A DNA stretch of 46,046 bases from Ruminococcus sp. (GTDB lineage: Bacteria > Bacillota > Clostridia > Oscillospirales > Acutalibacteraceae): the NCBI GenBank assembly GCA_017473775.1, contig JAFUJH010000062.1, forward strand, positions 1-46,046, given 5' to 3'. Below are positions 29,049-41,160 of the stretch, piece by piece; position 1 is the first letter of the stretch; each line of letters starts with the position of its first letter. The notes beneath the pieces are model-generated. The model saw only the letters and a program-made list of their open reading frames with translations, searched no databases and had not been told where the DNA came from. Position numbers and translations under genes: made by a program.

Positions 29049-31814
29049 TTACAGCTGGAGAGTAGCTTTGCTGCCTCCGCTTTTTTCTTTAGTTACAATT
29101 ATCTGTTTGTCAACTCTTTGTTTCAGCTCTGCAACATGAGAGATTATGCCTACAAGTCTGTTACCCTCAACAAGACCCATCAGAGCCTTCATAGCCTGAG
29201 ACAGGGATTCCTCGTCAAGGGAGCCGAAGCCCTCGTCAACAAACATTGTGTCAAGTCTCACTCCGCCTGCAGATGCCTGTATTTCGTCAGAAAGCCCTAA
29301 CGCCAGAGACAGAGACGCCTTGAAGGATTCACCACCGGATAAGGTTTTAACACTTCTCTGAGTGCTGTTATAGTGATCAATAACATCCAGCTCAAGACCG
29401 CTTTGACTGCGGTTGTTGGCGGCCTTTTTCTGTCTTATAAGCTCATACTGACCGCCTGTCATCACCATAAGCCTCAGGTTGGCACGCTCTATAATTCTGT
29501 CAAAGTAGGTCATCTGAATATAAGTCTCCAGCATAACCTTCTCCTTTGCCTGAATCTTGCCGTTTGCAGTGTCGGCAAGTGCCTTTATCCAGCGTAATCT
29601 GTTCTCTGTGCTTATAAGCTCCTCTGATTTACCTTTGATATTTAACAGTGAATGGCGGTTGGCAGACAGTCTTGTGGCCAACAGCTGTCGCTTGCTTGTA
29701 AACTTTGCTTTCTCTGCGGATATCTGCATTTTTTTCGCAAGCATCTCATCAAGGCTATGCTCACAGGTAGCAGTGGCGTGTTCTTTAAGCTGTGCAGTCT
29801 TTGCTTTGAGTGCAGAGTGTTCCTCTCTGATTTTTCTCAGGCTATCTGCGGCGGCTTCGATTTCCTTGATGATTGCATCACGCATAAGCTTCAGTTGATT
29901 TATATGAGCAGACGCAATCTCCTTGGTTGCAAACCTGAGCTTTGCTCTGAGCTTTTCGGCTTGCTGTGTCAGACTTCTGATTTTCTCTGTATCAGCGGCA
30001 ACAGCAGTTTCTGTTTGTGCAAGAGAAGCCTTGAGCTGTTCAAGCTTAATCTCAAGCTGAGGAAGCTGTTCATCCAAGTGAGCTTTCCTGTTGATTTTGC
30101 TTTCTTCTGCTTTGATTTCCTCTGTAAGTCTTATGATTTCACTTTGGGTGCTGTTGTAGAGCTCCTGCATTTTTTCGGGGATTTCCACAATATCTTTAGT
30201 AGCAATCAGTGCCTCAGCCTGAGTCAGCAGGTTATCCTCTGCACTATTCATAGTTGCCCGTGCAGCCGCACAATCCTGACTTGCCTTTGCTGTGATTGCC
30301 TGTGCTTTGTCTGCTTCGTCCTTAGCTTTTTTCAGTTGTGCTTCTGTAGGAGCGTCCGAGGACAGGGGTGCAGGTGTTGGATGAGTCTTTGAGCCGCATA
30401 CAGGGCAGGGAGTGCCCTCCGCAAGTGTGGCGGCAAGGATTCCTGCCTGTTCATCCAGAAACGCTTTGTTCATTGTTCTGTACTTCCGGTCTGCTTCGTT
30501 TGACGCTTTCTCTGCTTGTGTGTAGCTCTCAACACTCACAATGTAAGCTTTGGCTGCCTTGTTGTATTCATCGAGCAGTGTCCTCAGTGCGTCAAGCCTT
30601 GCAAGTATATCACGGGCTTTGTCCAGTGCGTTAATAAGAAATGCCTTGTTTTCTCCTGCATTCTCCAGAGAGAGTCTCTCTGCCCTCAGACTTATAAGAA
30701 CCTCTGCCAGCTTTTGCAGTTCGCTTTCTGTTTGGGCTTTTTGGCATAACTTTTTTTCAAGACTCTGCTCTGTAGCTGTAATCTCTTTGGTTACAGCCTC
30801 ATCCTCGTCATACATTACCAGTTCGCTTGAAAAAAGCGTTATCTCTGAACTGAGCTTGTCCTTTTCAACCTCTTTGGCTACAGCTTTGCTGTGCAAGGCT
30901 TCGGCATCTGCAAGGTCCATTGCCTTTTTCTCAAGGAGAGCTTCACTTTCCTCGAGTGCTGATTGTGCCTTCTGTGCTTCTTCGATTTTTCCGATAATTC
31001 CGTTTATCTCTGCAAGCACGCCGTCAAGCTCTGCAATCTCCTTGTCAGCAGCTTCTGCTTTCTTGTTGTCGTTATCAATCAGTACTTCAATAAGCTCAAT
31101 TACATCCTCTATGAGCATTTCGCCATTCTTGGCTTTTTCTACCTGAAATGACAGTGCATCCTCCTCGTCACAGAGTATTCCGCCTATGTACTGGTCAACA
31201 CTGCTTCGTACCTGCTCACATTTCTGAGCAAGGTCTCCTGAGGCACCCTTGAGTCGGTCCTGCAGTGTTCTGTATTTTGTTGTTTTGAAAATCTGTCTGA
31301 ATATCTTGATTCTGTCCTCGGTTGAAGCAAGCAGCAGTTTCAGGAAATCTCCCTGAGCAATCATTGCAATCTGCAGGAACTGCTCTCTGTCGATTCCCAT
31401 TATTTCTTTGATTTTTGTATCAACATCCTTGCGTTTGGCTATCACCTTACCGTCAGGCATTTTAAGCTCTGCCTCTGCCTTTTGGGTTGTAAATCCGTCA
31501 CCGCGGCTTTTAGGTCGGTCATACTCTGGATTACGCTTTACCTTGTACTGTTTGCCGTTGTATTCAAAGATAAGCTCAACCTCGGTTGGAGTTTCGTCTT
31601 TTGCATATTTTGAGCGGAACATTCCTGCTTCTCTGTTCTGACCGCTTGCCTCTCCGTACAGAGCAAACACAATTGCATCAAAGATGGTAGTCTTGCCTGC
31701 ACCTGTGTCACCTGTGATAAGATAAAGTCCGCTTGTACCTAAATTATCAAGCTCAAGCACCTGTGTGGCGGCATAGGGGCCGAAGGCTGTCATTGTAAGC
31801 TTTATAGGTCTCAT
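29049..31814 (-). CDS. sbcC: SbcC exonuclease subunit (Rad50 homologue)
   Basis: A 921-residue SMC-like ATPase that with SbcD cleaves DNA hairpins and processes double-strand ends. Walker A GDTGAGKTT (35-43) is followed by a long coiled coil interrupted by the zinc hook CPVC (about 468-471), a returning coiled coil, the signature LSGGES and Walker B MFVDEGFGSLDEE. Length is typical for Firmicutes. ATG at 31814 overlaps the sbcD stop by 4 bp (ATGA). Confidence 0.96.
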   Translation of the reverse strand: MRPIKLTMTAFGPYAATQVLELDNLGTSGLYLITGDTGAGKTTIFDAIVFALYGEASGQNREAGMFRSKYAKDETPTEVELIFEYNGKQYKVKRNPEYDRPKSRGDGFTTQKAEAELKMPDGKVIAKRKDVDTKIKEIMGIDREQFLQIAMIAQGDFLKLLLASTEDRIKIFRQIFKTTKYRTLQDRLKGASGDLAQKCEQVRSSVDQYIGGILCDEEDALSFQVEKAKNGEMLIEDVIELIEVLIDNDNKKAEAADKEIAELDGVLAEINGIIGKIEEAQKAQSALEESEALLEKKAMDLADAEALHSKAVAKEVEKDKLSSEITLFSSELVMYDEDEAVTKEITATEQSLEKKLCQKAQTESELQKLAEVLISLRAERLSLENAGENKAFLINALDKARDILARLDALRTLLDEYNKAAKAYIVSVESYTQAEKASNEADRKYRTMNKAFLDEQAGILAATLAEGTPCPVCGSKTHPTPAPLSSDAPTEAQLKKAKDEADKAQAITAKASQDCAAARATMNSAEDNLLTQAEALIATKDIVEIPEKMQELYNSTQSEIIRLTEEIKAEESKINRKAHLDEQLPQLEIKLEQLKASLAQTETAVAADTEKIRSLTQQAEKLRAKLRFATKEIASAHINQLKLMRDAIIKEIEAAADSLRKIREEHSALKAKTAQLKEHATATCEHSLDEMLAKKMQISAEKAKFTSKRQLLATRLSANRHSLLNIKGKSEELISTENRLRWIKALADTANGKIQAKEKVMLETYIQMTYFDRIIERANLRLMVMTGGQYELIRQKKAANNRSQSGLELDVIDHYNSTQRSVKTLSGGESFKASLSLALGLSDEIQASAGGVRLDTMFVDEGFGSLDEESLSQAMKALMGLVEGNRLVGIISHVAELKQRVDKQIIVTKEKSGGSKATLQL

Positions 31815-32950
31815 TCTTCATCCTCCCAGATTTCCTCAATAAGCTCCAGCATAAAGGCGTTTTGCTCATCACTCATTGGCTGATTGTTCTGTTCTTCATA
31901 GAAGTCTGCAAACAATTCCAGCGGAGACTTCCTCTCTACATCTGTTGCACCTGTGATTGATGTGCTTTGACGAGTCCGCTTGTTATCGTAATCAAGCTTC
32001 ATCAGGTTTGTGTACACAGTACGAAGAAGCCCCAGAGCATTGGGCACATCCTCCTCGTCCGTGAGGGTAATGTGCATATAGTCGGTTTTATAGGTGGTGT
32101 CCTTGTAAAACTTCTTTGCCATAATCTCCTGATATGTACCCCTTATTTCCTTCATATCTCTCATGGGAGTCAGTGGCACAGTGCTGATTGAGAGGCTTCC
32201 TTTTTCACAAAGCTCTACTACAGTGACTGATTTTTTATCATTAGCTTCAGAGAAGGAATACTTCAATGGAGTTCCGCAGTATCTTACTCTTTCACTTTTG
32301 CAATTCTGTGGAGAATGCAGATGTCCCAGTGCCACATAATCAAAACTGTCAAATACACTCACATCTACATTATCTGTACCACCCACAGAGATATCCTCCG
32401 ACTCACTGCGTGTAGCACCTGTTACAAACTGATGTGTAATAAGCACATTTCGTTTGCTTTCGTCAATATTCATATTATCCACAGCAACACGCATGGCATC
32501 TGTGTAGGACGCAATCTCCTTGTCTGCAAAGAATCTGCGTACATGAGCAGGCTTTACAAAGGGGAGCATATATAAATTTACCTCGCCGTATTCGTCGCTG
32601 AGTGTAACAGGCTCAACCTTGCCGCTATAAACAGGGGACAGGTGAATACCTTGTGAGCTCATCAGCCGAGAGCCAAAAGCAATACGCTCAGGGGAGTCAT
32701 GGTTGCCGCTTATAATTAACACCTGCAGATTCCTCTTTGACAGCCTGTACAGAAAGTCATCAAACAGCTGTACCGCCTCTGCACTGGGCACAGGCTTATC
32801 ATACACATCACCTGCAATAATAACTCCCTGAGGCTCAACCTCGTCAATAATACCTAATATCTGCATCAGTATGTATTGCTGATCCTCAATCATAGAGAAC
32901 TCATTGACCCTCTTGCCAATGTGAAGGTCAGATAAATGAACAAGTTTCAA
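31811..32950 (-). CDS. sbcD: SbcD nuclease subunit (Mre11 homologue)
   Basis: A 379-residue metallophosphoesterase. Manganese ligands lie in LSDLHIG (Asp 8, His 10), AGDVYD, SGNHDS, THQF and GHLH. It forms the SbcCD complex with the next gene. The start is TTG at 32950, 8 bp after AGGAGG. It is divergent from the WYL regulators across ~200 bp, so both promoters share that gap. Confidence 0.96.
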   Translation of the reverse strand: MKLVHLSDLHIGKRVNEFSMIEDQQYILMQILGIIDEVEPQGVIIAGDVYDKPVPSAEAVQLFDDFLYRLSKRNLQVLIISGNHDSPERIAFGSRLMSSQGIHLSPVYSGKVEPVTLSDEYGEVNLYMLPFVKPAHVRRFFADKEIASYTDAMRVAVDNMNIDESKRNVLITHQFVTGATRSESEDISVGGTDNVDVSVFDSFDYVALGHLHSPQNCKSERVRYCGTPLKYSFSEANDKKSVTVVELCEKGSLSISTVPLTPMRDMKEIRGTYQEIMAKKFYKDTTYKTDYMHITLTDEEDVPNALGLLRTVYTNLMKLDYDNKRTRQSTSITGATDVERKSPLELFADFYEEQNNQPMSDEQNAFMLELIEEIWEDEE

Positions 32951-33108: not shown

Positions 33109-33155
33109 TGTCTTGTTAATCAATGTTGATTCTATGCAGATAGGAGGTGGAGAAT

Positions 33156-34397
33156 TTGTCTGCATACAGTGAGCTTATCAAGAATTTTGAGAAGATTCGT
33201 GCCTATATGCGTGACTTCTATGTGTACGGATTCAAGAGCCGAGGCGAGTATAACACCAAAAGCTCCCGTTCCTACGACGATGAACGCCGCCGTATGGAGA
33301 GCTGGCTGGGTGACCATATGAGCTTTGTCAGGAGCAAAGACGGCAAGAATATGTTTATATCTATCGACAGCCGTGTAATATCCCATAACCCTCTGTACAG
33401 AGCGTGGAAGACTAAGTCCTTCACTGATAGGGATGTTACCCTGCATTTCATTCTCTTTGATATTCTCCACACACCTGATATAGCACTCACTTTGTCAGAG
33501 CTTCTCACTGAGATTGACACCTATCTTGCTGATTTTGACGAGCCTCTGGCTCTGGATGAATCCACAGTCAGAAAGAAGCTCAAGGAGTATACCGCAGAGG
33601 GAATAATTATTGCAGAGAAACAGGGCAGAAGTGTGGCATACCGCAGAGCAGGGGATACCTTCTGCGTTAAAGATACCGACGCTATCCATTATTTCTCTGA
33701 GGTTTTACCTTGCGGAGTTATCGGCTCCTACATACTTGACAAACAGCCCGAGCATCCCGACAGACTCTACTTCAAGCATCATTATATAACCTCAGCACTG
33801 GACAGCGATGTGCTGTGCACTTTGTTTGATGCTATCCGACGCAGATGCTTTGTCACTCTTAACAGCTTCACCCGATACAGTAGCGACAGCTCTGTTCTTA
33901 AACTTGTACCGCTGAAGATCTACATTAGCGCTCAAAGCGGCAGACAGCATCTGCTTGCCTATGATACTCGTCTGAAGTATATCAAAGCTTTCAGAATTGA
34001 TTCCCTGTCTGATGTGCAAATCGAAGATACCTGTCAGGAGTACGGGGAATTAAGAGCAAAGCTGGATTCTTTATCCGAGCATATGTGGGGAGTCAACTGC
34101 AATAAAAGCGAACGACTCAGCCGCGTGGACTTTACTGTTCGGATAGATCCTGACGAGGATTATATCGTCCGCAGACTATATCGTGAGAAGCGGATAGGTA
34201 CTGTAGAAAAGCTGGACGAAAGCCACTATCGCTTTTATGCAGATGTATATGATACAAGCGAGTTGATTCCTTGGATTCGTACTTTTATCTGCCGAATCAC
34301 ACAGCTTAGCTTCTCTGATAGAACGACAGAAAACCTGTTCAAAAAGGATATAGAAGCTATGTATAAATTGTATTCTGTAGGAGGTGAGCAGTCTTGA
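33156..34397 (+). CDS. WYL-domain regulator, first of a pair
   Basis: About 413 residues. TTG 33156 is best: AGGAGGTGG lies 6-7 bp upstream, whereas the GTG at 33147 falls within it. The N-terminal ~80 residues are basic and winged-helix-like (RGEYNTKSSRSYDDERRR). A second helical segment follows (DESTVRKKLKEYTAEG), then a WYL domain (about 245-300; LLAYDTRLKYIKAFRIDSL) and a C-terminal extension. WYL domains sense nucleic acid or nucleotide ligands in defence, repair and SOS-like regulators. It overlaps the next gene (TTGA), like the PafB-PafC pair. Its targets are probably the downstream SPFH/rtcB unit, sbcDC, or both; this is inference. Confidence 0.83.
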   Translation: MSAYSELIKNFEKIRAYMRDFYVYGFKSRGEYNTKSSRSYDDERRRMESWLGDHMSFVRSKDGKNMFISIDSRVISHNPLYRAWKTKSFTDRDVTLHFILFDILHTPDIALTLSELLTEIDTYLADFDEPLALDESTVRKKLKEYTAEGIIIAEKQGRSVAYRRAGDTFCVKDTDAIHYFSEVLPCGVIGSYILDKQPEHPDRLYFKHHYITSALDSDVLCTLFDAIRRRCFVTLNSFTRYSSDSSVLKLVPLKIYISAQSGRQHLLAYDTRLKYIKAFRIDSLSDVQIEDTCQEYGELRAKLDSLSEHMWGVNCNKSERLSRVDFTVRIDPDEDYIVRRLYREKRIGTVEKLDESHYRFYADVYDTSELIPWIRTFICRITQLSFSDRTTENLFKKDIEAMYKLYSVGGEQS

Positions 34398-35305
34398 TTT
34401 TCAGCGAGCTTTACTCAGCCTATTACAATGCTATTGCAGAGATACTCACTTGCCTGATTAAAGGTGAAAAAGACGAGGCAACCCTTCGTCAGGCGGTACA
34501 GCGTCACGCTTTTTCAGACAGTGTGCTCACTGTTCTTCCATCCCTTAAATCCCAGAAGTGGCAGCTTGTACACAGCGATATGACAACTCCTGTCAGGAAT
34601 ATCCCAACAATGCCCCTCACAGATTTACAGCGTCGTTGGCTCAAGGCTGTTTCACTTGACCCCCGTGTGCGTTTGTTTGATATGGACTTTTCGTCTCTTT
34701 CGGATGTGGAGCCCCTGTTCACTCCCGAGGACTATGTGGTATATGATGCTTACAGAGACGGCGACCCTTATACAGACGAGCAATATATCAGGAACTTTAG
34801 AACCATTCTTTCTGCTATAAAAGAGCACAGCACAGTGAAGTTTGAAACCGTCAACCGTTCCGGCAGGAATATAAGTCTTGTGATGTTACCTAAGCATCTG
34901 GAGTATTCTCAGAAGGATGACAAATTCCGCGTGATATGTGCAGGCCACCGCTTCAGCAATACTTTGAATCTTGCCCGTATCATATCCTGTCGTAAGTGTT
35001 ACAGCGTGAAGGAGTATTTCTCCTGCGAGCATAAGCGAGAGACGCGGACTCTGACACTGAGGATTACCGATAAGCGTAACGCTCTTGAACGAACTATGCT
35101 TCACTTTGCACACTTTGAGAAGCAGGCAGAGCGGATTGATGATATTCATTACAATTTACACCTGACCTATGACAAAGAGGACGAGACCGAGCTTGTTATC
35201 AGGGTGTTAGGCTTCGGCCCTCTTATAGAGGTAACATCGCCACAAAGCTTTAGAAATTTAATAATAGAACGGCTTGAAAAGCAAAAAAGCTGCGGACTTG
35301 CGTGA
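34394..35305 (+). CDS. WYL-domain regulator, second of a pair
   Basis: 303 residues starting with TTG 34394, 9 bp after AGGAGG and overlapping the previous stop. The N-terminus is shorter than in the first protein, with no obvious winged helix. The central region (LTDLQRRWLKAVSLDPRVRLF) resembles WYL proteins, and the WYL domain follows (about 135-210; SLVMLPKHLEYSQKDDKFR, RFSNTLNLARI). It may need the first protein for DNA binding, as heterodimeric PafBC does. The stop codon lies inside a hairpin. Confidence 0.78.
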   Translation: MIFSELYSAYYNAIAEILTCLIKGEKDEATLRQAVQRHAFSDSVLTVLPSLKSQKWQLVHSDMTTPVRNIPTMPLTDLQRRWLKAVSLDPRVRLFDMDFSSLSDVEPLFTPEDYVVYDAYRDGDPYTDEQYIRNFRTILSAIKEHSTVKFETVNRSGRNISLVMLPKHLEYSQKDDKFRVICAGHRFSNTLNLARIISCRKCYSVKEYFSCEHKRETRTLTLRITDKRNALERTMLHFAHFEKQAERIDDIHYNLHLTYDKEDETELVIRVLGFGPLIEVTSPQSFRNLIIERLEKQKSCGLA

Positions 35306-35327
35306 GTGTCCTCGGGACATTCACGCA
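35299..35327 (+). promoter_or_regulatory. Hairpin overlapping the WYL2 stop codon
   Basis: A 13-bp stem with one G-T pair (35299-35311 with 35315-35327) and a 3-nt loop. The stop codon at 35303-35305 is within the left arm. No T tract follows, so it is not a simple terminator; it could stabilise or process the mRNA end. Confidence 0.4.
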
Positions 35328-35414
35328 GCGATATAAATTCTTTCCGAAATTTGTGATATGTTGCTGATGTAACTCATTATGCCATTTGCTTTATATGTTT
35401 GCTACACAAACAAT

Positions 35415-35557
35415 AGATTTATATCATATCGTATCCGAATTTAGTGAGGATATATCGCATTTACAAGGTAAATATATCGTGTTGAGCTTTGCTCAACATA
35501 TCGTAAAAGAAACAGAATCATATGGGTTTTCCCAAATGGTTCTGTTTCTTTCTTTTT
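35415..35557 (+). repeat. Palindromic intergenic repeat ending in a terminator
   Basis: An AT-rich stretch with recurring ATATCG/CGATAT words, the perfect hairpin GTTGAGC-TTT-GCTCAAC (35481-35497), and a final stem AGAAACAGAA/TTCTGTTTCT (35508-35517 with 35540-35549, inner TGGG-TTTT-CCCA) that runs into T-rich TTTCTTTTT. It resembles the non-coding palindromic elements scattered in gut Clostridia genomes and would terminate the WYL transcript. Only one copy is visible here, so repeat status is not proven. Confidence 0.45.
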
Positions 35558-35629
35558 AAGTTCGCAGCTTTTTTTCCGTGTTAAATGTTTACTCAATTGC
35601 TAAAATATCCTTGCAAGGTTACTCAAACG

Positions 35630-35795
35630 GGTGATTGACGCTCACCGTGGTGCACGAAGCTGTGCTTTCAGTGTATGCCGAGAACACTTGCACCTATGAC
35701 AGCCTGAGGAGTACTCAGGAATAGGGAGCAGTGCCTCCCGTGCGTCTTATCCTTTTTGATCGTGGGTTCAATTCCCACCGTGTGTAATATACACG
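35630..35795 (+). ncRNA. Candidate structured RNA with a tRNA-like T-arm
   Basis: A chain of stems: GGTGA/TCACC (35630-34, 35642-46); GGTGCA/TGCACC (35649-54, 35689-94) enclosing GAAGC-TGT-GCTTTC and AGTGT/ACACT (35670-74, 35684-88); CCTGAG/CTCAGG (35703-08, 35714-19); GGGAG/CTCCC (35724-28, 35735-39); and a canonical T-arm GTGGG-TTCAATT-CCCAC (35762-35778). The T-arm is followed by CGTGTGTA, which can pair with GTGCACG (35650-56) using wobbles. It is not a normal tRNA: no D-arm fits and the anticodon-like loop lacks T33. It lies between WYL regulators and rtcB. Bacterial Y RNAs also mimic tRNA near RNA-repair genes, but no Ro gene is seen. Ends are approximate. Confidence 0.45.
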
Positions 35796-35855
35796 CTGAT
35801 TGGTTATGTCAAGAAAGATAAAAACATTTTTGGTAATGTAAAAAAAGAGCTCTCA

Positions 35856-36031
35856 GCAATTACTCCGCCTTTGATGTATAAGCATAGCTTTAATACTCAA
35901 AAGGCAAATATGCTCTCAGCCTTGTCTCGTTGCAGATACCGTGTAAGTTTGCATAGTACCAGAAGCTCTGCTTTCCGTTCTATGCAAGGTGCACTCAAGC
36001 TCTGAGCCGCCGTGAGTATATGAGTAATTGC
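35856..36031. ncRNA. Second candidate structured RNA, closed by a 10-bp terminal stem
   Basis: GCAATTACTC (35856-35865) is the exact reverse complement of GAGTAATTGC (36022-36031), closing a ~176-nt region. Inside, TTGCATAG/CTATGCAA (35949-56, 35980-87) encloses GAAGC-TCT-GCTTTC, a near copy of the hairpin in the first candidate, and GGTGCAC recurs at 35988. Orientation is undecided: on the minus strand a run of seven T lies 9 nt beyond the terminal stem (35841-35847), which would suit a minus-strand RNA; on the plus strand it lies directly before the SPFH gene and could be its leader. No ORF of note. Confidence 0.35.
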
Positions 36032-36096
36032 AAAGTCGCAGACCACCGCAAGTCGGTTTACATAAAATATAATTATTAATAAAGAGGTGTTATAAT

Positions 36097-37197
36097 ATGA
36101 GAAAAATCATCATTAACGACAACCAAAGAGGATTCCTATTCAAAAACGGAAAGTATGAGAAAATGCTTACAGCAGGTAAGTACAACCTCAGCCGCAATAT
36201 GGAGGTTGAGATAGCTCGGCTTGATGCCGCCATAGCTCCCAAGCATTGCACTCTTGATACCTTGCTTGCAGATAAGGCAGTATCACAGTATCTTGATGTT
36301 ATCGAGGTGCTTGATATGCAGATTGCACTCCACTATGTAAACGGAGTTTTTGAGTCAATCCTCAAAAGCGGCAGGCACGCATTCTGGAATATCCACCAGA
36401 ATCACCGGTTCACCATTGTGGATATATCAGATCCTATGATGAACGGCAAAGTTCCTGAGCACATCTTCAGCCGAATTGCCAATATCTACTACACAAAGGT
36501 AGAGATTGCAGACTACGAGAAAGGCCGTCTGTATTATAACAGCAAGTTCATAAAGCTTCTGGATGCAGGTACATACTATTTCTGGAAGAACGGCACCAAG
36601 GTAGATGTTGGTATCGTTGATACCAGACTTACACAACTGAATATTGCAGGTCAGGAGATTCTCACTCTTGATAAGGTAGCAGTAAGAATCAACTTTGTTC
36701 TGAATTACCGCGTCACGGATTATGTGAATGTTCTGACACAAATCGATAATTTTACCGAGCAGATACATGTGTGTGCTCAGCTTGCACTCAGGGAGTTTGT
36801 CGGCAAGCACAAGCTTGACGAAATACTGGATTCCAAGGATGAGCTTGGTCAGTATGTGTTCTCAAAGCTTAAAGCAAAGGAGCAGGATCTGTTTGTAACC
36901 TTCAGCGATGCAGGTGTCAAGGATATTATCCTTCCCGGCGAGGTTCGTTCCATTATGAACACTGTCCTCATTGCAGAGAAGCGTGCACAGGCAAGCATCA
37001 TCACACGCCGCGAGGAGGTAGCTTCTACCCGTTCACTGCTCAACACTGCCCGTCTTATGGACGAGAATCAGACTCTCTACAGACTCAAGGAGCTTGAGTA
37101 CATCGAGCGTATTTGTGAGAATGTAGGTAACATCAATCTGAGCGGTGGGGATATGCTCACTCAGCTTGCAGGAATTATCGGAGCAAAAAGCTCCTGA
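36097..37197 (+). CDS. SPFH/band-7 (slipin-like) protein linked to RtcB
   Basis: 366 residues. No signal peptide or membrane helix. The N-terminal ~170 residues hold three copies of a short motif: FLFKNGKYEKMLTAGKYNL (~13-31), LHYVNGVFESILKSGRHAFW (~74-93) and LYYNSKFIKLLDAGTYYFWK (~151-170). The last leads into the SPFH core (VRINFVLNYRVTDYVNVL, DEILDSKDELGQYV), with a coiled C-terminal part (AEKRAQASIITRREEVAST). SPFH proteins assemble into membrane-associated rings. Families of this type sit beside rtcB in several bacterial RNA-repair loci. AGAGGTG precedes the ATG; 72 bp before rtcB. Confidence 0.85.
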   Translation: MRKIIINDNQRGFLFKNGKYEKMLTAGKYNLSRNMEVEIARLDAAIAPKHCTLDTLLADKAVSQYLDVIEVLDMQIALHYVNGVFESILKSGRHAFWNIHQNHRFTIVDISDPMMNGKVPEHIFSRIANIYYTKVEIADYEKGRLYYNSKFIKLLDAGTYYFWKNGTKVDVGIVDTRLTQLNIAGQEILTLDKVAVRINFVLNYRVTDYVNVLTQIDNFTEQIHVCAQLALREFVGKHKLDEILDSKDELGQYVFSKLKAKEQDLFVTFSDAGVKDIILPGEVRSIMNTVLIAEKRAQASIITRREEVASTRSLLNTARLMDENQTLYRLKELEYIERICENVGNINLSGGDMLTQLAGIIGAKSS

Positions 37198-37215
37198 TAC
37201 AATACAGTAACTCAG

Positions 37216-37250
37216 GAGGATTCAGCAAAGCTCTGCTGAGTCCTCATTTT
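37216..37250 (+). promoter_or_regulatory. Hairpin between the SPFH gene and rtcB
   Basis: GAGGATTCAGCA (37216-37227) pairs with TGCTGAGTCCTC (37234-37245) around AAGCTC, with one T-G pair, then ATTTTC. This is a weak or partial terminator that may lower rtcB output relative to SPFH, or a processing site. Confidence 0.5.
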
Positions 37251-37269
37251 CTATGAAAGGAGAATTAAT

Positions 37270-38472
37270 ATGATAGAAGTAATCGGAAAGCATAACACAG
37301 CCCTGTGTTATACAGATATACTGGAGAGCTCAGCCTACGGACAGATTCTGGCTGTTTGTAACGAATCAGCCTTCGCTGACTCCAAAATCCGCATTATGCC
37401 TGATGTTCACGCAGGTCTGGGCTGTACCATCGGCACAACTATGACAGTAACTGATAAGGTTGTCCCCGGTATGGTGGGCGTGGATATCGGTTGCGGTATG
37501 GAAACAGTAAAGATCAAAGAAAAGGATATCGACTTTGAAAAACTGGACACCCTCATCCGCAAGGAGATTCCCTGCGGCAGAGCGGTCAGAAGGATATCTC
37601 ATCCTCTTAATAAAGAGATAAGCCTCAAGGAGCTTGTCTGTGCATCTGCAGTTGATATAGAATACGCCGGAAAAAGCATCGGTACTCTGGGGGGAGGCAA
37701 TCACTTCATTGAGCTTGATAAGGACAGCGACGGCAATGTATACCTTGTTGTACATTCAGGAAGCCGTCACTTAGGTTGTGAGGTTGCAAAGCTATATCAA
37801 CTGGAGGGCAGGCGTGCAATGTGGGGCGGAGCCCGTCACCAGATTTTAGAGGTCATCAGTAACCTGAAGGAACAGGGCAGGCACAAGGAGATAGAGTCCA
37901 CTGTCCGCTCTCTCAAGCAGGACCACAGAATCGACATTCCTCATGAGCTGGCATATGTAGAGGGCAGGCTCTTTGATGACTACATCCACGATATGAAGAT
38001 AGTACAGCATTTTGCAACCCTCAACAGAAAGGCTATGACCGATATAATTTTAGAGGGAATGGGCTTTACAGAGATTGAGCGTTTTACTACAATTCATAAC
38101 TACATTGATACAGATTCTATGATTCTCAGAAAAGGTGCAGTGTCTGCAAAAGCAAGGGAGAAGCTTCTGATTCCTATCAATATGCGTGACGGAAGCCTTA
38201 TCTGTATTGGCAAGGGTAACGAGGATTGGAATTGCTCAGCACCTCACGGAGCAGGCAGGCTTATGTCTAGAAGTGCCGCATCACAGACTCTGTCTATGGA
38301 TGAGTACAAGGAGCAGATGTCGGGAATTTTCACTACCTGCATCAGCCCCGACACCCTCGACGAATCTCCTATGGCATACAAAAGTCTGGAGAATATTGTC
38401 AGCAATATTACTCCTACTGCGGATATAGTCTGCAGAATCACTCCCATCTATAATTTCAAGTCTGCAGAATAA
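37270..38472 (+). CDS. rtcB: RtcB RNA ligase
   Basis: A 400-residue GTP/Mn-dependent ligase joining RNA 2',3'-cyclic phosphate (or 3'-phosphate) to 5'-OH ends. Visible motifs: MPDVHAGLGCTIG, GVDIGCGME (metal-binding Cys), GGGNHFIEL, VHSGSRHLG, TIHNYID, and GKGNEDWNCSAPHGAGRLMSR with the His that becomes guanylylated. Length fits the bacterial short type. GAAAGGAG precedes the ATG. No rtcA, rtcR, archease or Ro gene is nearby; the partners here are SPFH and, upstream, two WYL regulators and candidate RNAs. Confidence 0.95.
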   Translation: MIEVIGKHNTALCYTDILESSAYGQILAVCNESAFADSKIRIMPDVHAGLGCTIGTTMTVTDKVVPGMVGVDIGCGMETVKIKEKDIDFEKLDTLIRKEIPCGRAVRRISHPLNKEISLKELVCASAVDIEYAGKSIGTLGGGNHFIELDKDSDGNVYLVVHSGSRHLGCEVAKLYQLEGRRAMWGGARHQILEVISNLKEQGRHKEIESTVRSLKQDHRIDIPHELAYVEGRLFDDYIHDMKIVQHFATLNRKAMTDIILEGMGFTEIERFTTIHNYIDTDSMILRKGAVSAKAREKLLIPINMRDGSLICIGKGNEDWNCSAPHGAGRLMSRSAASQTLSMDEYKEQMSGIFTTCISPDTLDESPMAYKSLENIVSNITPTADIVCRITPIYNFKSAE

Positions 38473-38556: not shown

Positions 38557-39495
38557 GTGAAATCATTATTCAGAAGATTTACCGCTTCTTTTCTTGTGTT
38601 AATGCTTCTTTTCGCTTCGGTATGCTTTACTGCAACTGCTGCTGCAGATGAGTTCCCCAATACCCACATCAACACAGGCAATCAGCGGATTGATATTATT
38701 GAGATTGCAAAAACTCAGGTAGGATTCAGAGAAGGTCCCCATAACGACACAAAGTACGGCAGCTGGTACGGACTTCCAAATCAGCCTTGGTGCGCAATGT
38801 TTGTGTCATGGTGTGCACGGCAGGCAGGTATCCCTACGGATATTCTCCGTAACTGTGCTGTTGCTGCTCCTGACTACGGCTACTTTGATATTCCTTACTA
38901 TGACGGTGAGGAATACACTCCCCAGACAGGCGACCTGTTTTTTACCAAGACCTTCAGCCATGTTGGACTTGTCTATTATGTAGATGGAGAGTATTGCTAC
39001 ACTATCGAGGGCAACACCAATATTGACGGAAGTAACGAGGGAATAGGTGTGTTTATCCGCACAAGAAAGATTAGCGATTATTATTTCGGTGTGCCTGATT
39101 ATAATTACAAATCACAGCAGACCCACCAGTGCGATAAATCATCCTGTATCAGCGTTGAATCCGCACATCCTCATTACTCCAACTATCTTTGCTCTGTGTG
39201 CAAGGCGATCACACCTGATTATTCCAGCTTCAATTACGCTGACAAATGTATCGATTGTGCCAAGAATCACCACCGAGGCTATGTGGGTGACTGCGACGGC
39301 GACAGGATAGTAACCATCAAGGATGCTACCGCAATCCAGAAGCATATCGCTCAGGTTGCCCTGATACCTGATAATTATCTTGGTTTTGCAGATGCAGATA
39401 CGGACACTGTCCTTACCATCAAGGATGCCACTGCAATTCAGAAGCACATCGCAGGCATAGACACAGGATATCCCATAGGTGTAGCAGTAACATAA
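38557..39495 (+). CDS. Secreted CHAP-domain amidase/peptidase with type I dockerin
   Basis: 312 residues, GTG start after GAGAGGA. A signal peptide (1-30) precedes a CHAP-like cysteine peptidase/amidase domain (about 44-185; NQPWCAMFVSWCARQAG with the catalytic Cys, and FSHVGLVYYV with the His). A Cys/His-rich linker (about 188-240; CDKSSC, CSVC, KCIDC) may bind metal. At the C-terminus is a dockerin with two calcium-loop repeats (DCDGDRIVTIKDATAIQKHI and DADTDTVLTIKDATAIQKHI). Dockerins bind cohesins of cellulosome-type scaffolds; a peptidoglycan-cutting enzyme attached this way suggests wall remodelling at the scaffold. Own promoter and terminator. Confidence 0.9.
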   Translation: MKSLFRRFTASFLVLMLLFASVCFTATAAADEFPNTHINTGNQRIDIIEIAKTQVGFREGPHNDTKYGSWYGLPNQPWCAMFVSWCARQAGIPTDILRNCAVAAPDYGYFDIPYYDGEEYTPQTGDLFFTKTFSHVGLVYYVDGEYCYTIEGNTNIDGSNEGIGVFIRTRKISDYYFGVPDYNYKSQQTHQCDKSSCISVESAHPHYSNYLCSVCKAITPDYSSFNYADKCIDCAKNHHRGYVGDCDGDRIVTIKDATAIQKHIAQVALIPDNYLGFADADTDTVLTIKDATAIQKHIAGIDTGYPIGVAVT

Positions 39496-39612: not shown

Positions 39613-39641
39613 TTGAAATCGAACAAACATTCTGTTATTAT
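39613..39641 (+). promoter_or_regulatory. Promoter with LexA-like SOS box ahead of uvrX
   Basis: TTGAAA (39613-39618), a 17-bp spacer and TATTAT (39636-39641). The spacer holds CGAACAAACATTCTG (39620-39634), one base from the Gram-positive LexA core GAAC-N4-GTTC. A repressor bound there would block the promoter, as expected for a damage-inducible polymerase. Confidence 0.6.
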
Positions 39642-39672
39642 ATATGTAGCGAAGTTTAAAGGAGGGGTAGAA

Positions 39673-41160
39673 GTGAATAAGAAATATTTGTGTATAGATT
39701 TAAAGTCCTTCTATGCCTCTGTTGAGTGTGTAGAAAGACGCCTTGACCCGTTGACTACAAATCTTGTTGTTGCGGATATAAGCAGAACAGAAAAGACCAT
39801 TTGTCTGGCTGTTACGCCTTCTCTGAAGTCCTTTGGGATATCAGGCAGAGCAAGGCTCTTTGAGGTTCTTGAACAAGTAGGAAGAATCAACGCAGACAGA
39901 CAAAGAAAAGCCGGAACAAAAAAACTTTTAAAAGGTGTTTATGATATTCGGGAGATACAGAGCAATCCCTATGTTGCTCTTGATTTTGTCATAGCTCCCC
40001 CCCGTATGTCCCACTATATGAAATGGAGCACATACATATATCAGATATATCTTAAATATGTTTCACCTGATGATATTCACGCCTACTCCATCGATGAGGT
40101 TTTTATTGATATTACAGGTTATCTGGAGAATGCAAAGATGACAGCCCGTGAGTTTGCGCAGACAATTATTCTGGATGTAATGAGGAGCACAGGCATTACA
40201 GCCACCGCAGGTATAGGCACAAATATGTATCTTGCAAAAATTGCAATGGATATTTCTGCTAAGAAGATGCCTGCAGATGAGAACGGAGTACGAATCGCTG
40301 AGCTTGATGAAATGTCATACAGAGAGAAGCTGTGGTCCCATACACCTATTACAGACTTCTGGCGAGTTGGCAGAGGCATTGCAAAAAAACTTGAAAATTA
40401 CGGTATGCACACTATGGGGGATGTAGCCCGTTGTTCTCTGGAATGTGAGGATTGGCTCTATCAGATGTTTGGAGTGAACGCAGAGCTTCTCATAGACCAC
40501 GCCTGGGGTTGGGAGCCTTGCACCATTGCCGATGTAAAAGCATACAAGCCCACCTCAACAAGTCTCAGCACAGGTCAGGTACTGCATTGTCCCTACACCT
40601 TTGAAAAAGCAAGACTTATCGCAAGAGAGATGATAGACCAGCTTGTCTACGACCTTGTAGAAAAGAAGCTTGCAACTGACCAGTTGGTGCTCACCGTTGG
40701 TTACGATATAGAGAATCTTCGGAATAAAGAGATTATGAGCACATATAAGGGTGAGATATGTGTTGACCACTATGGCCGCAAAGTTCCAAAGCACGCCCAT
40801 GGCACAACAAACCTGCCAAGCAAAACTATGTCATCAACAGCACTTATCAATGCACTCGTAGAATTATTTGACAGGATTGTTGATAAAAACCTTTTGGTCC
40901 GCAGACTTACAATTGCAGCCTGTAAGCTTGTTGATGAGGCAGAGGTTACAAAGGGCTTTGTTGCTGAACAGCTGGACCTGTTTACGGATTATGATACACA
41001 GTCAAATTCGGAATCGCTCTCAAGAGAAAAGAAAATGCAGGACGCAGTTGTAACTATAAAACACAGATTTGGCAAGAACGCCATCTTCAAAGGTATGAAT
41101 CTTCAGGATGGTGCAACCGCAATAGAGCGTAACGGCCAAATCGGCGGACATAAAGCGTGA
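39673..41160 (+). CDS. uvrX: Y-family DNA polymerase, UvrX/UmuC type
   Basis: 495 residues from GTG 39673, preceded by AAAGGAGGGG; the frame is open 60 bp further upstream without a ribosome site. The catalytic palm shows CIDLKSFYASVECVERRLDPL (first Asp) and YSIDEVFIDITGY (Asp-Glu pair); the thumb and little-finger regions follow. QLDLF (433-437) is a beta-clamp-binding motif. It performs error-prone lesion bypass. It is followed 11 bp later by a YolD-like partner, the same pairing as uvrX-yolD on SP-beta and on many Firmicutes plasmids and ICEs, so mobile origin is possible. Confidence 0.94.
   Translation: MNKKYLCIDLKSFYASVECVERRLDPLTTNLVVADISRTEKTICLAVTPSLKSFGISGRARLFEVLEQVGRINADRQRKAGTKKLLKGVYDIREIQSNPYVALDFVIAPPRMSHYMKWSTYIYQIYLKYVSPDDIHAYSIDEVFIDITGYLENAKMTAREFAQTIILDVMRSTGITATAGIGTNMYLAKIAMDISAKKMPADENGVRIAELDEMSYREKLWSHTPITDFWRVGRGIAKKLENYGMHTMGDVARCSLECEDWLYQMFGVNAELLIDHAWGWEPCTIADVKAYKPTSTSLSTGQVLHCPYTFEKARLIAREMIDQLVYDLVEKKLATDQLVLTVGYDIENLRNKEIMSTYKGEICVDHYGRKVPKHAHGTTNLPSKTMSSTALINALVELFDRIVDKNLLVRRLTIAACKLVDEAEVTKGFVAEQLDLFTDYDTQSNSESLSREKKMQDAVVTIKHRFGKNAIFKGMNLQDGATAIERNGQIGGHKA

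What the first reader, a model, noticed from the sequence alone, without database searches (positions are those of the whole stretch)
33156..38472. RNA-repair island: WYL pair, two candidate RNAs, SPFH protein and RtcB
RtcB seals broken RNA, and known bacterial rtcB operons are controlled by RtcR (a CARF regulator) and can carry Ro and Y RNA. Here none of those is present. Instead, two overlapping WYL regulators, a 790-bp non-coding gap with tRNA-like structure and an SPFH ring protein stand in line on one strand. The arrangement suggests WYL-sensed damaged RNA, a resident tRNA-mimic RNA, and RtcB localised by a band-7 scaffold. The gene families are seen; the joint function is inference.
Basis: partly seen in the sequence, partly recalled or inferred. 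Interest (0 to 1): 0.82.

Follow-up and report, generated by a model that had tools for sequence, protein, structure and literature searches.

The report
RNA-repair operon with a tRNA-mimic RNA
A bacterium carries an RNA-repair gene cluster that hides a large folded RNA with a tRNA-shaped piece whose parts stand in rotated order, kept next to a stomatin-like protein and an RNA-sealing enzyme in many bacteria; what the RNA does is untested.

Summary
The genes are as described: two overlapping WYL regulators, a 791-bp gap, an SPFH (slipin-like) protein and RtcB, all + strand. The gap is two things. 35325-35515 is a dispersed repeat. The rest (about 35612-36031) is a structured RNA of about 420 nt: 30 of 34 pairs of its 3' core show compensatory changes in 43 sequences; no Rfam 15 family reaches its gathering score there. 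It holds a tRNA-like module in circularly permuted order (T-arm, closed acceptor stem, D-arm; in relatives then an anticodon arm or a tetraloop hairpin), the topology known from the Y RNA YrlA. RNA and SPFH go together: T-arm in 74 of 77 gaps. Repair partners vary: RtcB, RlaP, Pnkp/Hen1. A conserved element 20 nt before the -10 box accompanies the WYL pair; Citrobacter has RtcR there. I read it as a WYL-controlled RNA-repair ribonucleoprotein. SPFH with a tRNA-like RNA in RNA repair was, as I recall, reported in 2016 (paper not held). Permuted cloverleaf, varying anticodons, 3' domain and WYL element look new to me. Function is untested.

The parts
33147..34397 (+). WYL1: HTH plus WYL-domain regulator
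   Evidence: PADLOC WYL 2.5e-11 over 215-385 and Csa3 1.2e-5 over 102-175; alignment of 22 sequences
34394..35305 (+). WYL2: WYL/WCX partner, overlaps WYL1 by 4 bases
   Evidence: PADLOC WYL 3.3e-11; WCX 9.2e-5
35325..35515 (.). dispersed intergenic repeat in the gap; not part of the conserved RNA
   Evidence: 16 further partial matches in own genome
35561..35580 (+). putative WYL operator TTCGCAGCTTTTTTTCCGTG
   Evidence: its first 17 bases have no second site in the own genome even with 1 mismatch; binding is inference
35598..35606 (+). extended -10 box TGC-TAAAAT, 20 nt after the element; RNA start about 35612 is inferred from it
   Evidence: spacing 20 in 29 and 22 in 3 of 32 matching gaps
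35611..35692 (+). 5' module of the RNA, motif GGTGCAC...GTGTATGCC at 35649-35679
   Evidence: alignments read by eye
35762..35808 (+). permuted tRNA-like module: T-arm 35762-35778, closed acceptor stem 35779-35795, D-arm-like 35796-35808; no clear anticodon arm in the window copy
35856..36031 (+). 3' domain of the RNA; 35902-36025 matches covariance model R1 (88.4 bits; the window is one of the 43 sequences the model was built from)
36097..37197 (+). SPFH/Band-7 (slipin-like) protein, 366 aa, no predicted TM helix
37270..38472 (+). RtcB-family RNA ligase, 400 aa

Best explanation
This is a dedicated RNA-repair operon. Its constant core is a soluble SPFH (slipin-like) protein and a structured RNA of about 420 nt with a 5' module, a tRNA-like module (here circularly permuted; two in some relatives) and a conserved 3' domain. 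The repair enzymes beside it vary: RtcB here, RlaP or Pnkp/Hen1 elsewhere. The WYL pair acts at one element upstream of an extended -10 promoter and switches RNA, SPFH and rtcB on when damaged or cyclic nucleic-acid ends appear; in Citrobacter RtcR stands in that place. The RNA sits on an SPFH ring and offers a tRNA-shaped face that brings the ligase and broken tRNA-like RNA together. Shown by sequence: anatomy, conservation, permuted order, change of partners, association of the element with the WYL pair. Inferred: that the RNA is a free transcript, that RNA and SPFH bind each other, the ring, the ligand of WYL, and the repair role of the particle.
For: T-arm in 74 of 77 gaps; GATACC in 71 of 77. 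In 391 class genomes 10 have SPFH (E<=1e-20) and 6 the RNA model, 5 shared; the other 5 SPFH loci carry a T-arm and GATACCG upstream, and the RNA without an SPFH hit (G365) has the SPFH start, 88 residues at 36%, cut by its contig end. 3' core: 30 of 34 pairs with compensatory changes, 43 sequences. tRNA-like module: covariation score 0.234 against 0.130 shuffled, 0 of 500 (36 sequences) and 0.216 against 0.096, 0 of 500 (17 sequences). Partners: RlaP, Hen1, PNKP ligase, RtcB. Promoter pattern in 32 of 35 gaps, present also where the WYL pair is divergent (L040, L043), one site in the own genome. RtcR beside SPFH and RlaP in Citrobacter. In Anabaena a repressor relieved by translational stress controls rtcB, a slipin and a tRNA operon (passages of PMC10272220).
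Against: No expression, binding or repair data. 32 of 57 fully held loci have neither the close WYL pair nor an adjacent rtcB. Two of five measures did not exceed shuffles (pairs with double change 10 against 8.9, 164 of 500; pair types 28 against 26.5, 146 of 500). The 3' domain model was not found in E. coli, Citrobacter or Burkholderia loci and in only 20 of 31 loci given at E<=1, so the RNA is not shown to be one family throughout. E. coli TUM12355 keeps the T-arm region and RlaP without an annotated slipin gene, so SPFH can be lost. RtcB may have been exchanged: that of L022-L024, L028 and L034 is 66-70% identical to the window's, that of L003-L014 about 56-59%, the reverse of SPFH. The structure tool was off.
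Confidence: 0.55

Rival explanations
1. The RNA is a cis-acting leader of the SPFH-rtcB mRNA that senses damaged tRNA or another ligand, not a free RNA that works with SPFH.
For: It lies directly upstream of SPFH on the same strand; in the five shared genomes the R1 match ends 27-72 nt before the SPFH start.
Against: The module copies a tRNA rather than binding one; a promoter-level element already goes with the regulator; modules are doubled in L111-L114 and stand in canonical order as tRNA-like units in Photobacterium and Burkholderia. None of this excludes a leader.
Confidence: 0.2
2. The tRNA-like module is bait for anticodon nucleases and other tRNA-cleaving toxins; the linked ligase reseals it, and its cut ends feed the WYL or RtcR sensor.
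For: In 45 distinct Paenibacillus-type modules with a 7-nt loop, U33 is kept in 41 and a purine at 37 in 44, while positions 34-36 vary (13 triplets among those with U33; UUC 11, UUU 9, UCC 7) on a nearly fixed stem (42 of 45 CTCGA/TCGAG); partners are RNA end-joining systems.
Against: Many clostridial modules carry GAAA or UUCG tetraloop hairpins instead of an anticodon, and the window shows neither; of 99 Paenibacillus-type loci 18 have the T-arm but not this arm, and 8 of 64 arms have loops of 4-6 nt; the commonest triplets differ by single transitions, so drift is possible.
Confidence: 0.15
3. A permuted tRNA gene that is matured into a working tRNA, as in red algae and archaea (recalled).
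For: Complete cloverleaf in rotated order in many Paenibacillus-type loci; RtcB could circularise a precursor.
Against: No clear anticodon arm in the window and tetraloop hairpins in many clostridial copies; the module sits inside a larger conserved RNA.
Confidence: 0.03
4. A divergent tmRNA.
For: A tmRNA model fragment matches the T-arm (17 bits, E 1.2e-4).
Against: The genome has a full tmRNA elsewhere (156.8 bits); the match covers model positions 346-363 only and lies below the gathering score of 47.
Confidence: 0.01

Closest known systems
SPFH/Band-7 modules with a cognate 'novel tRNA-like molecule' in RNA-repair systems (Burroughs & Aravind 2016, NAR gkw722; abstract recalled, paper not held; its title seen in reference lists)
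   Same: SPFH protein, tRNA-like ncRNA and RNA-repair enzymes in one neighbourhood
   Different: Whether that paper gives the permuted order, the 3' domain, the varying anticodons or the WYL element could not be checked
YrlA bacterial Y RNA (PDB 6CU1)
   Same: tRNA-like module with T, D and acceptor arms, circularly permuted against tRNA (passages); Y RNA and rtcB share an operon in some bacteria
   Different: Gene partner is SPFH, not Ro/Rsr; no TROVE gene in this genome; about 420 nt against 90-150 nt; own conserved 3' domain; some relatives have full anticodon arms
RtcR-controlled rtcBA operon (Salmonella, E. coli)
   Same: RtcB under a ligand-binding regulator; CARF and WYL are treated together in a review (title and start of abstract seen)
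   Different: WYL pair instead of RtcR here; no rtcA among the adjacent genes scanned
Anabaena TrcR regulon (PMC10272220, passages)
   Same: rtcB, a slipin and extra tRNAs are co-regulated, with relief by translational stress
   Different: Different repressor family; genes not in one operon; the term tRNA-like does not occur in its text
Pseudomonas aeruginosa PaFlo8 (PMC13086221, one passage)
   Same: SPFH gene embedded in the rtc locus
   Different: Its upstream RNA, if any, was not examined here

Membership tests
SPFH/Band-7 RNA-repair module (recalled, 2016) | SPFH gene beside RNA ligase or end-healing enzymes | tested here: met
SPFH/Band-7 RNA-repair module (recalled, 2016) | cognate tRNA-like ncRNA | tested here: met
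   74 of 77 gaps; identity with the published RNA not checkable, paper not held
YrlA / bacterial Y RNA | tRNA-like module in permuted order | tested here: met
   against passages
YrlA / bacterial Y RNA | Ro/Rsr (TROVE) partner | tested here: not met
   0 matches in own genome, 94% complete
YrlA / bacterial Y RNA | match to an Rfam Y RNA family | tested here: not met
tRNA | canonical cloverleaf found by ARAGORN or Rfam RF00005 | tested here: not met
   none in the window gap; L050, L067, L070 exceed the RF00005 gathering score with matches that start after the T-arm
tmRNA | full RF00023 match | tested here: not met
RtcR-rtcBA operon | RtcR divergent from rtcBA, rtcA present | tested here: not met
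   nine window proteins scanned, neither found; the Citrobacter relative has RtcR
RtcB ligase | conserved catalytic blocks (their role recalled) | tested here: met
   PDVH, DIGCG, GGGNHF, VHSGSR and HGAGR align to 4dwr
PafBC-type WYL pair (recalled) | tandem WYL regulators with sequence match to PafB/PafC | tested here: inconclusive
   tandem pair yes; WYL1 profile 0.035 to a regulator-like chain of 7p5x and 0.58 to PafC, WYL2 0.21 to PafBC
Vault (MVP) | MVP repeats before the SPFH domain | tested here: not met
   no Vault/MVP Pfam or PDB sequence hit; 5 of 7 N-termini tested, not the window's, hit the start of Band_7, one above cut-off
SPFH ring or cage | oligomeric ring | not testable with these tools
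   structure prediction switched off

The most novel reading that the evidence does not exclude
A bacterial RNP like a small vault: an SPFH cage with a circularly permuted tRNA decoy whose anticodon diversifies, which baits tRNA-cleaving toxins, is resealed by the linked ligase, and whose cut form is the signal read by the WYL pair or RtcR. As far as I recall, a natural complete permuted cloverleaf with its anticodon has not been described in bacteria; the listings showed none.
Probability: 0.14. Interest if true: 0.92.

Novelty: new variant of a known kind. Interest (0 to 1): 0.72.

Why it matters
It gives a group of bacterial SPFH/slipin proteins a concrete RNA partner that can be tested. 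It is another case, beside YrlA, of a circularly permuted tRNA fold next to RNA repair. It supplies a covariance-ready RNA that no Rfam 15 family covers at its gathering score apart from partial tRNA hits in three relatives, and an element that makes WYL control of RNA repair testable. A related slipin module lies in E. coli, a laboratory species: a 1.1-kb Citrobacter query over the gap and the slipin start matches 1624 of 5426 complete E. coli genomes, none over 80% of its length.

Tried and rejected
Fold of the SPFH protein against the vault: not possible, so the vault stays an analogy; sequence searches gave no MVP hit. tmRNA reading: rejected. Canonical tRNA reading of the window: rejected. 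The idea that TTCGCAGCTTTTTTTCC is only the terminator of WYL2: weakened, since it also stands in L040 and L043, where the WYL pair is divergent; a double role is possible. Phage origin: no SPFH match at 1e-5 in 50,697 phage records.

Limits of the counts. One search kept the best 80 of 126 relatives. Of 81 gaps (80 loci and the window) 77 were used; L031, L048, L072, L077 had no usable SPFH start, and L062 held only 29 nt. A4 has 36 and A5 17 of the 74 modules; the other 21 are in neither, among them odd or missing ones (L014, L021, L022, L025, L029, L032, L041, L042) and near-duplicates. MAFFT misaligned the acceptor stem of the CTGAC group in A4, so understates pairing there. The expected value comes from mononucleotide shuffles, and its 35 gaps were chosen by me for a WYL gene upstream. 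In one search some arms were mis-called (L074, L078, L080, L081, L111, L114, L172, L173); one search is the stricter count, but its 17 'no T-arm near GATACC' include loci such as L129, L135, L169, L189 and L196 that do have a module. RlaP was tested for one of the 10 loci of its cluster in Bacillota and for two enterobacterial proteins. Literature: 10 of 10 searches used; no listed title or abstract start is about this RNA, but the library lacks most subscription papers. Of PMC7790460, PMC11090510, PMC7824862, PMC11472068, PMC8394870, PMC13086221, PMC13100048 and PMC10272220 I saw passages only.
Full report
What is in the window. Four genes stand in line on the + strand: 33147-34397, 34394-35305, 36097-37197 and 37270-38472. 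The last two are an SPFH/Band-7 protein and an RtcB-family ligase. The first two are weak in Pfam but hit PADLOC's WYL model at 2.5e-11 and 3.3e-11. In the own genome (94% complete) I found one rtcB gene, no TROVE/Ro gene, no RlaP and a normal tmRNA elsewhere. RtcB keeps the blocks that align to solved RtcB chains. SPFH shows no membrane helix by hydropathy: highest 19-residue Kyte-Doolittle mean 1.04 in the window protein and at most 1.46 among 52 aligned proteins. Against solved structures its profile positions 135-340 match stomatin (2.5e-26); positions 1-134 match nothing convincing.

The gap is a repeat plus an RNA. 35325-35515 has 16 further partial matches in the own genome. The rest carries a predicted promoter and a structured RNA. 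35609-36060 folds at -141.4 kcal/mol, z -3.38, 0 of 100 shuffles as stable. The tRNA-like part alone gives z -1.24, so single-sequence folding proves little; comparison does.

Comparison. A scan with the SPFH protein found 126 relatives and kept the best 80, mostly Clostridia and Paenibacillus by record title, with a few Bacteroidota. Of 81 gaps 77 were usable. A T-arm motif stands on the coding strand in 74 of 77 and on the other strand in none; the misses are L035, L045 and L062 (29 nt held). GATACC stands in 71 of 77. The 3' core of 43 sequences has 34 predicted pairs, 30 with at least one compensatory change. Its covariance model R1 finds one copy in the own genome. In 391 genomes of the class R1 matches 6 and SPFH (E<=1e-20) occurs in 10; five are shared. 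I then read the rest: the five SPFH loci without an R1 hit in the strict scan carry a T-arm and GATACCG upstream; three of them (L110-L112) also reach R1 with laxer filters, two (L113, L114) do not; one shared locus (L115) has R1 but no T-arm motif; the RNA without SPFH (G365) has the start of SPFH (88 residues, 36%) cut by its contig end. So in this sample I saw no clear case of one without the other. Outside it there are limits: of the 31 loci given, R1 matched 20 at E<=1 (one of these at 0.42) and missed 11, among them the Bacteroidota loci L078, L080 and L081; and it found nothing in the E. coli, Citrobacter and Burkholderia loci. Within the own genus 1 of 35 relatives has a strong SPFH match (G028, 73%); the others show only weak matches (best about 1e-6) or none. 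By contrast 160 of 394 genomes of the family of G659 have SPFH at E<=1e-60; that this family is Paenibacillaceae is my inference.

The permuted tRNA-like module. After the T-arm comes not a single acceptor strand but a closed hairpin, then a D-arm, then in many loci an anticodon-like arm. A stem of 5 bp or more follows the T-arm directly in 67 of 74 loci, against 26.7 expected from dinucleotide shuffles; 6 bp or more in 47 against 12.6. Pairs of the clostridial form covary (36 sequences: score 0.234, shuffled 0.130, 0 of 500, slid controls at most 0.109; but double-change pairs 10 against 8.9 and pair types 28 against 26.5 do not exceed shuffles). So do those of the Paenibacillus form (17 sequences: 0.216 against 0.096, 0 of 500; double-change pairs 8 against 3.6, 0 of 500). 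ARAGORN called no tRNA over this module in the Clostridia and Paenibacillus loci among the 30 scanned, as expected for a permuted order; the Rfam tRNA model passes its gathering score in 3 of 9 loci tested at places that begin after the T-arm. YrlA superposes on tRNA with a circular permutation (passages of PMC11472068), so the topology has a precedent. Many clostridial loci replace the anticodon arm by a short hairpin with GAAA or UUCG loops (by eye); the window copy has a weak D-arm and no clear anticodon arm. In the Paenibacillus type 64 of 99 loci have the arm, 18 have the T-arm but not this arm, and 17 had no T-arm motif near GATACC. Of 64 arms 56 have a 7-nt loop and 8 have 4-6 nt. Of 45 distinct modules with a 7-nt loop 41 keep U33 and 44 a purine at 37, while the anticodon positions vary most (0.95, 1.26, 1.55 bits at 34-36 against 0.31-0.52 at the other loop positions) and 13 triplets occur among those with U33. 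Two modules stand in tandem in L111-L114.

Partners and regulators change. Neighbouring genes include RtcB, RlaP (PF10127), Hen1 and a PNKP-ligase protein; RlaP often stands beside RtcB rather than in its place. Of 57 loci with both flanks held 17 have the close WYL pair upstream and rtcB directly downstream, 7 only the WYL pair, 1 only rtcB, 32 neither; among L003-L049 (29 fully held) the WYL pair is in 23 and rtcB in 18. Before the RNA stands TTTTTCCRYG, then 20 nt (29 gaps) or 22 nt (3 gaps), then TANNNT: 32 of 35 gaps that I chose for a WYL gene upstream, against 0.01 in mononucleotide shuffles. The longer motif (TTCGCA, two or three bases, then a run of T) is in 39 of 77 gaps and, by my count on that listing, in 31 of 34 loci with a WYL1 match of 300 bits or more, two of them with the WYL pair divergent, so it is not only a terminator; it is absent from the Paenibacillus gaps. 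The own genome has a single site. In Citrobacter an SPFH protein of this family sits beside RlaP and divergent from rtcR, after a sigma54-like promoter that I recognise from memory, with a T-arm and a closed acceptor stem upstream (by eye). E. coli PT109 has slipin and RlaP between yjbD and lysC, with a zeta toxin gene and no rtcR adjacent; a query from the Citrobacter locus matches 1624 of 5426 E. coli genomes. E. coli TUM12355 keeps the T-arm region and RlaP but has no annotated slipin gene. One Photobacterium and two Burkholderia records have tRNA-like units in canonical order, in Burkholderia with a GAAA loop in place of the anticodon. In Pseudomonas aeruginosa a paper places an SPFH gene in the rtc locus (one passage of PMC13086221).

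How it most likely works. The WYL pair probably activates one promoter that makes the RNA and then SPFH and RtcB. SPFH likely forms a ring; the RNA likely sits on it and offers a tRNA-shaped face; the ligase seals broken tRNA or tRNA-like RNA there. Anabaena gives outside support: a repressor relieved by translational stress controls rtcB, a slipin and a tRNA operon (passages of PMC10272220). The bolder reading is that the module is bait for anticodon nucleases: varying anticodons on a fixed stem fit it, the tetraloop forms do not. All functional steps are inference.

Known or new. I recall that Burroughs and Aravind (2016) named SPFH/Band-7 proteins with a novel tRNA-like molecule as parts of RNA-repair systems; the paper is not held, so I could not see how much of this anatomy it gives. 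No Rfam 15 family reaches its gathering score over the RNA in the window or in 9 relatives, apart from the partial tRNA hits and two true tRNAs. I file it as a new variant of a known kind.

Noticed in passing
window 29049-32950 and 39613-41160: sbcC and sbcD homologues stand divergent from the WYL pair, and an impB/mucB/samB-family polymerase lies downstream: DNA-repair genes on both sides of the operon.
   Followed up: no
window 38557-39495: CHAP-domain protein with a dockerin between rtcB and the polymerase gene.
   Followed up: no
window 35325-35515: Dispersed repeat; 8 of its 16 further partial matches lie on one contig, C43; 35318-35512 folds with z -3.25.
   Followed up: partly
L201 5787-6713: In E. 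coli PT109 a zeta toxin family gene on the other strand follows slipin and RlaP; TUM12355 has it too.
   Followed up: no
L078, L080, L081 upstream of SPFH: Bacteroidota loci carry true tRNA genes (Gln, Tyr; Cys, Ile; Glu, Tyr, Gln, Asn) within about 1.6 kb upstream of SPFH, beside the tRNA-like units.
   Followed up: partly
L203 3665-3806: Photobacterium: two tRNA-like units in canonical order, one called tRNA-Met (CAU) by ARAGORN, after a 5' module that resembles the clostridial one.
   Followed up: partly
L004, L006, L008, L009, L010, L013, L018, L021, L023, L028: A second T-arm-like hairpin (GAYGGGGTTCRACTCCCC) stands 23-42 nt before the main T-arm; in L029 and L032 it is the only one.
   Followed up: partly
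L053-L058, L060, L073, L075: In these loci a PNKP-type ligase protein, mostly with a Hen1 methyltransferase, lies upstream of the RNA, and the blast search saw no rtcB match in the stretch held.
   Followed up: partly
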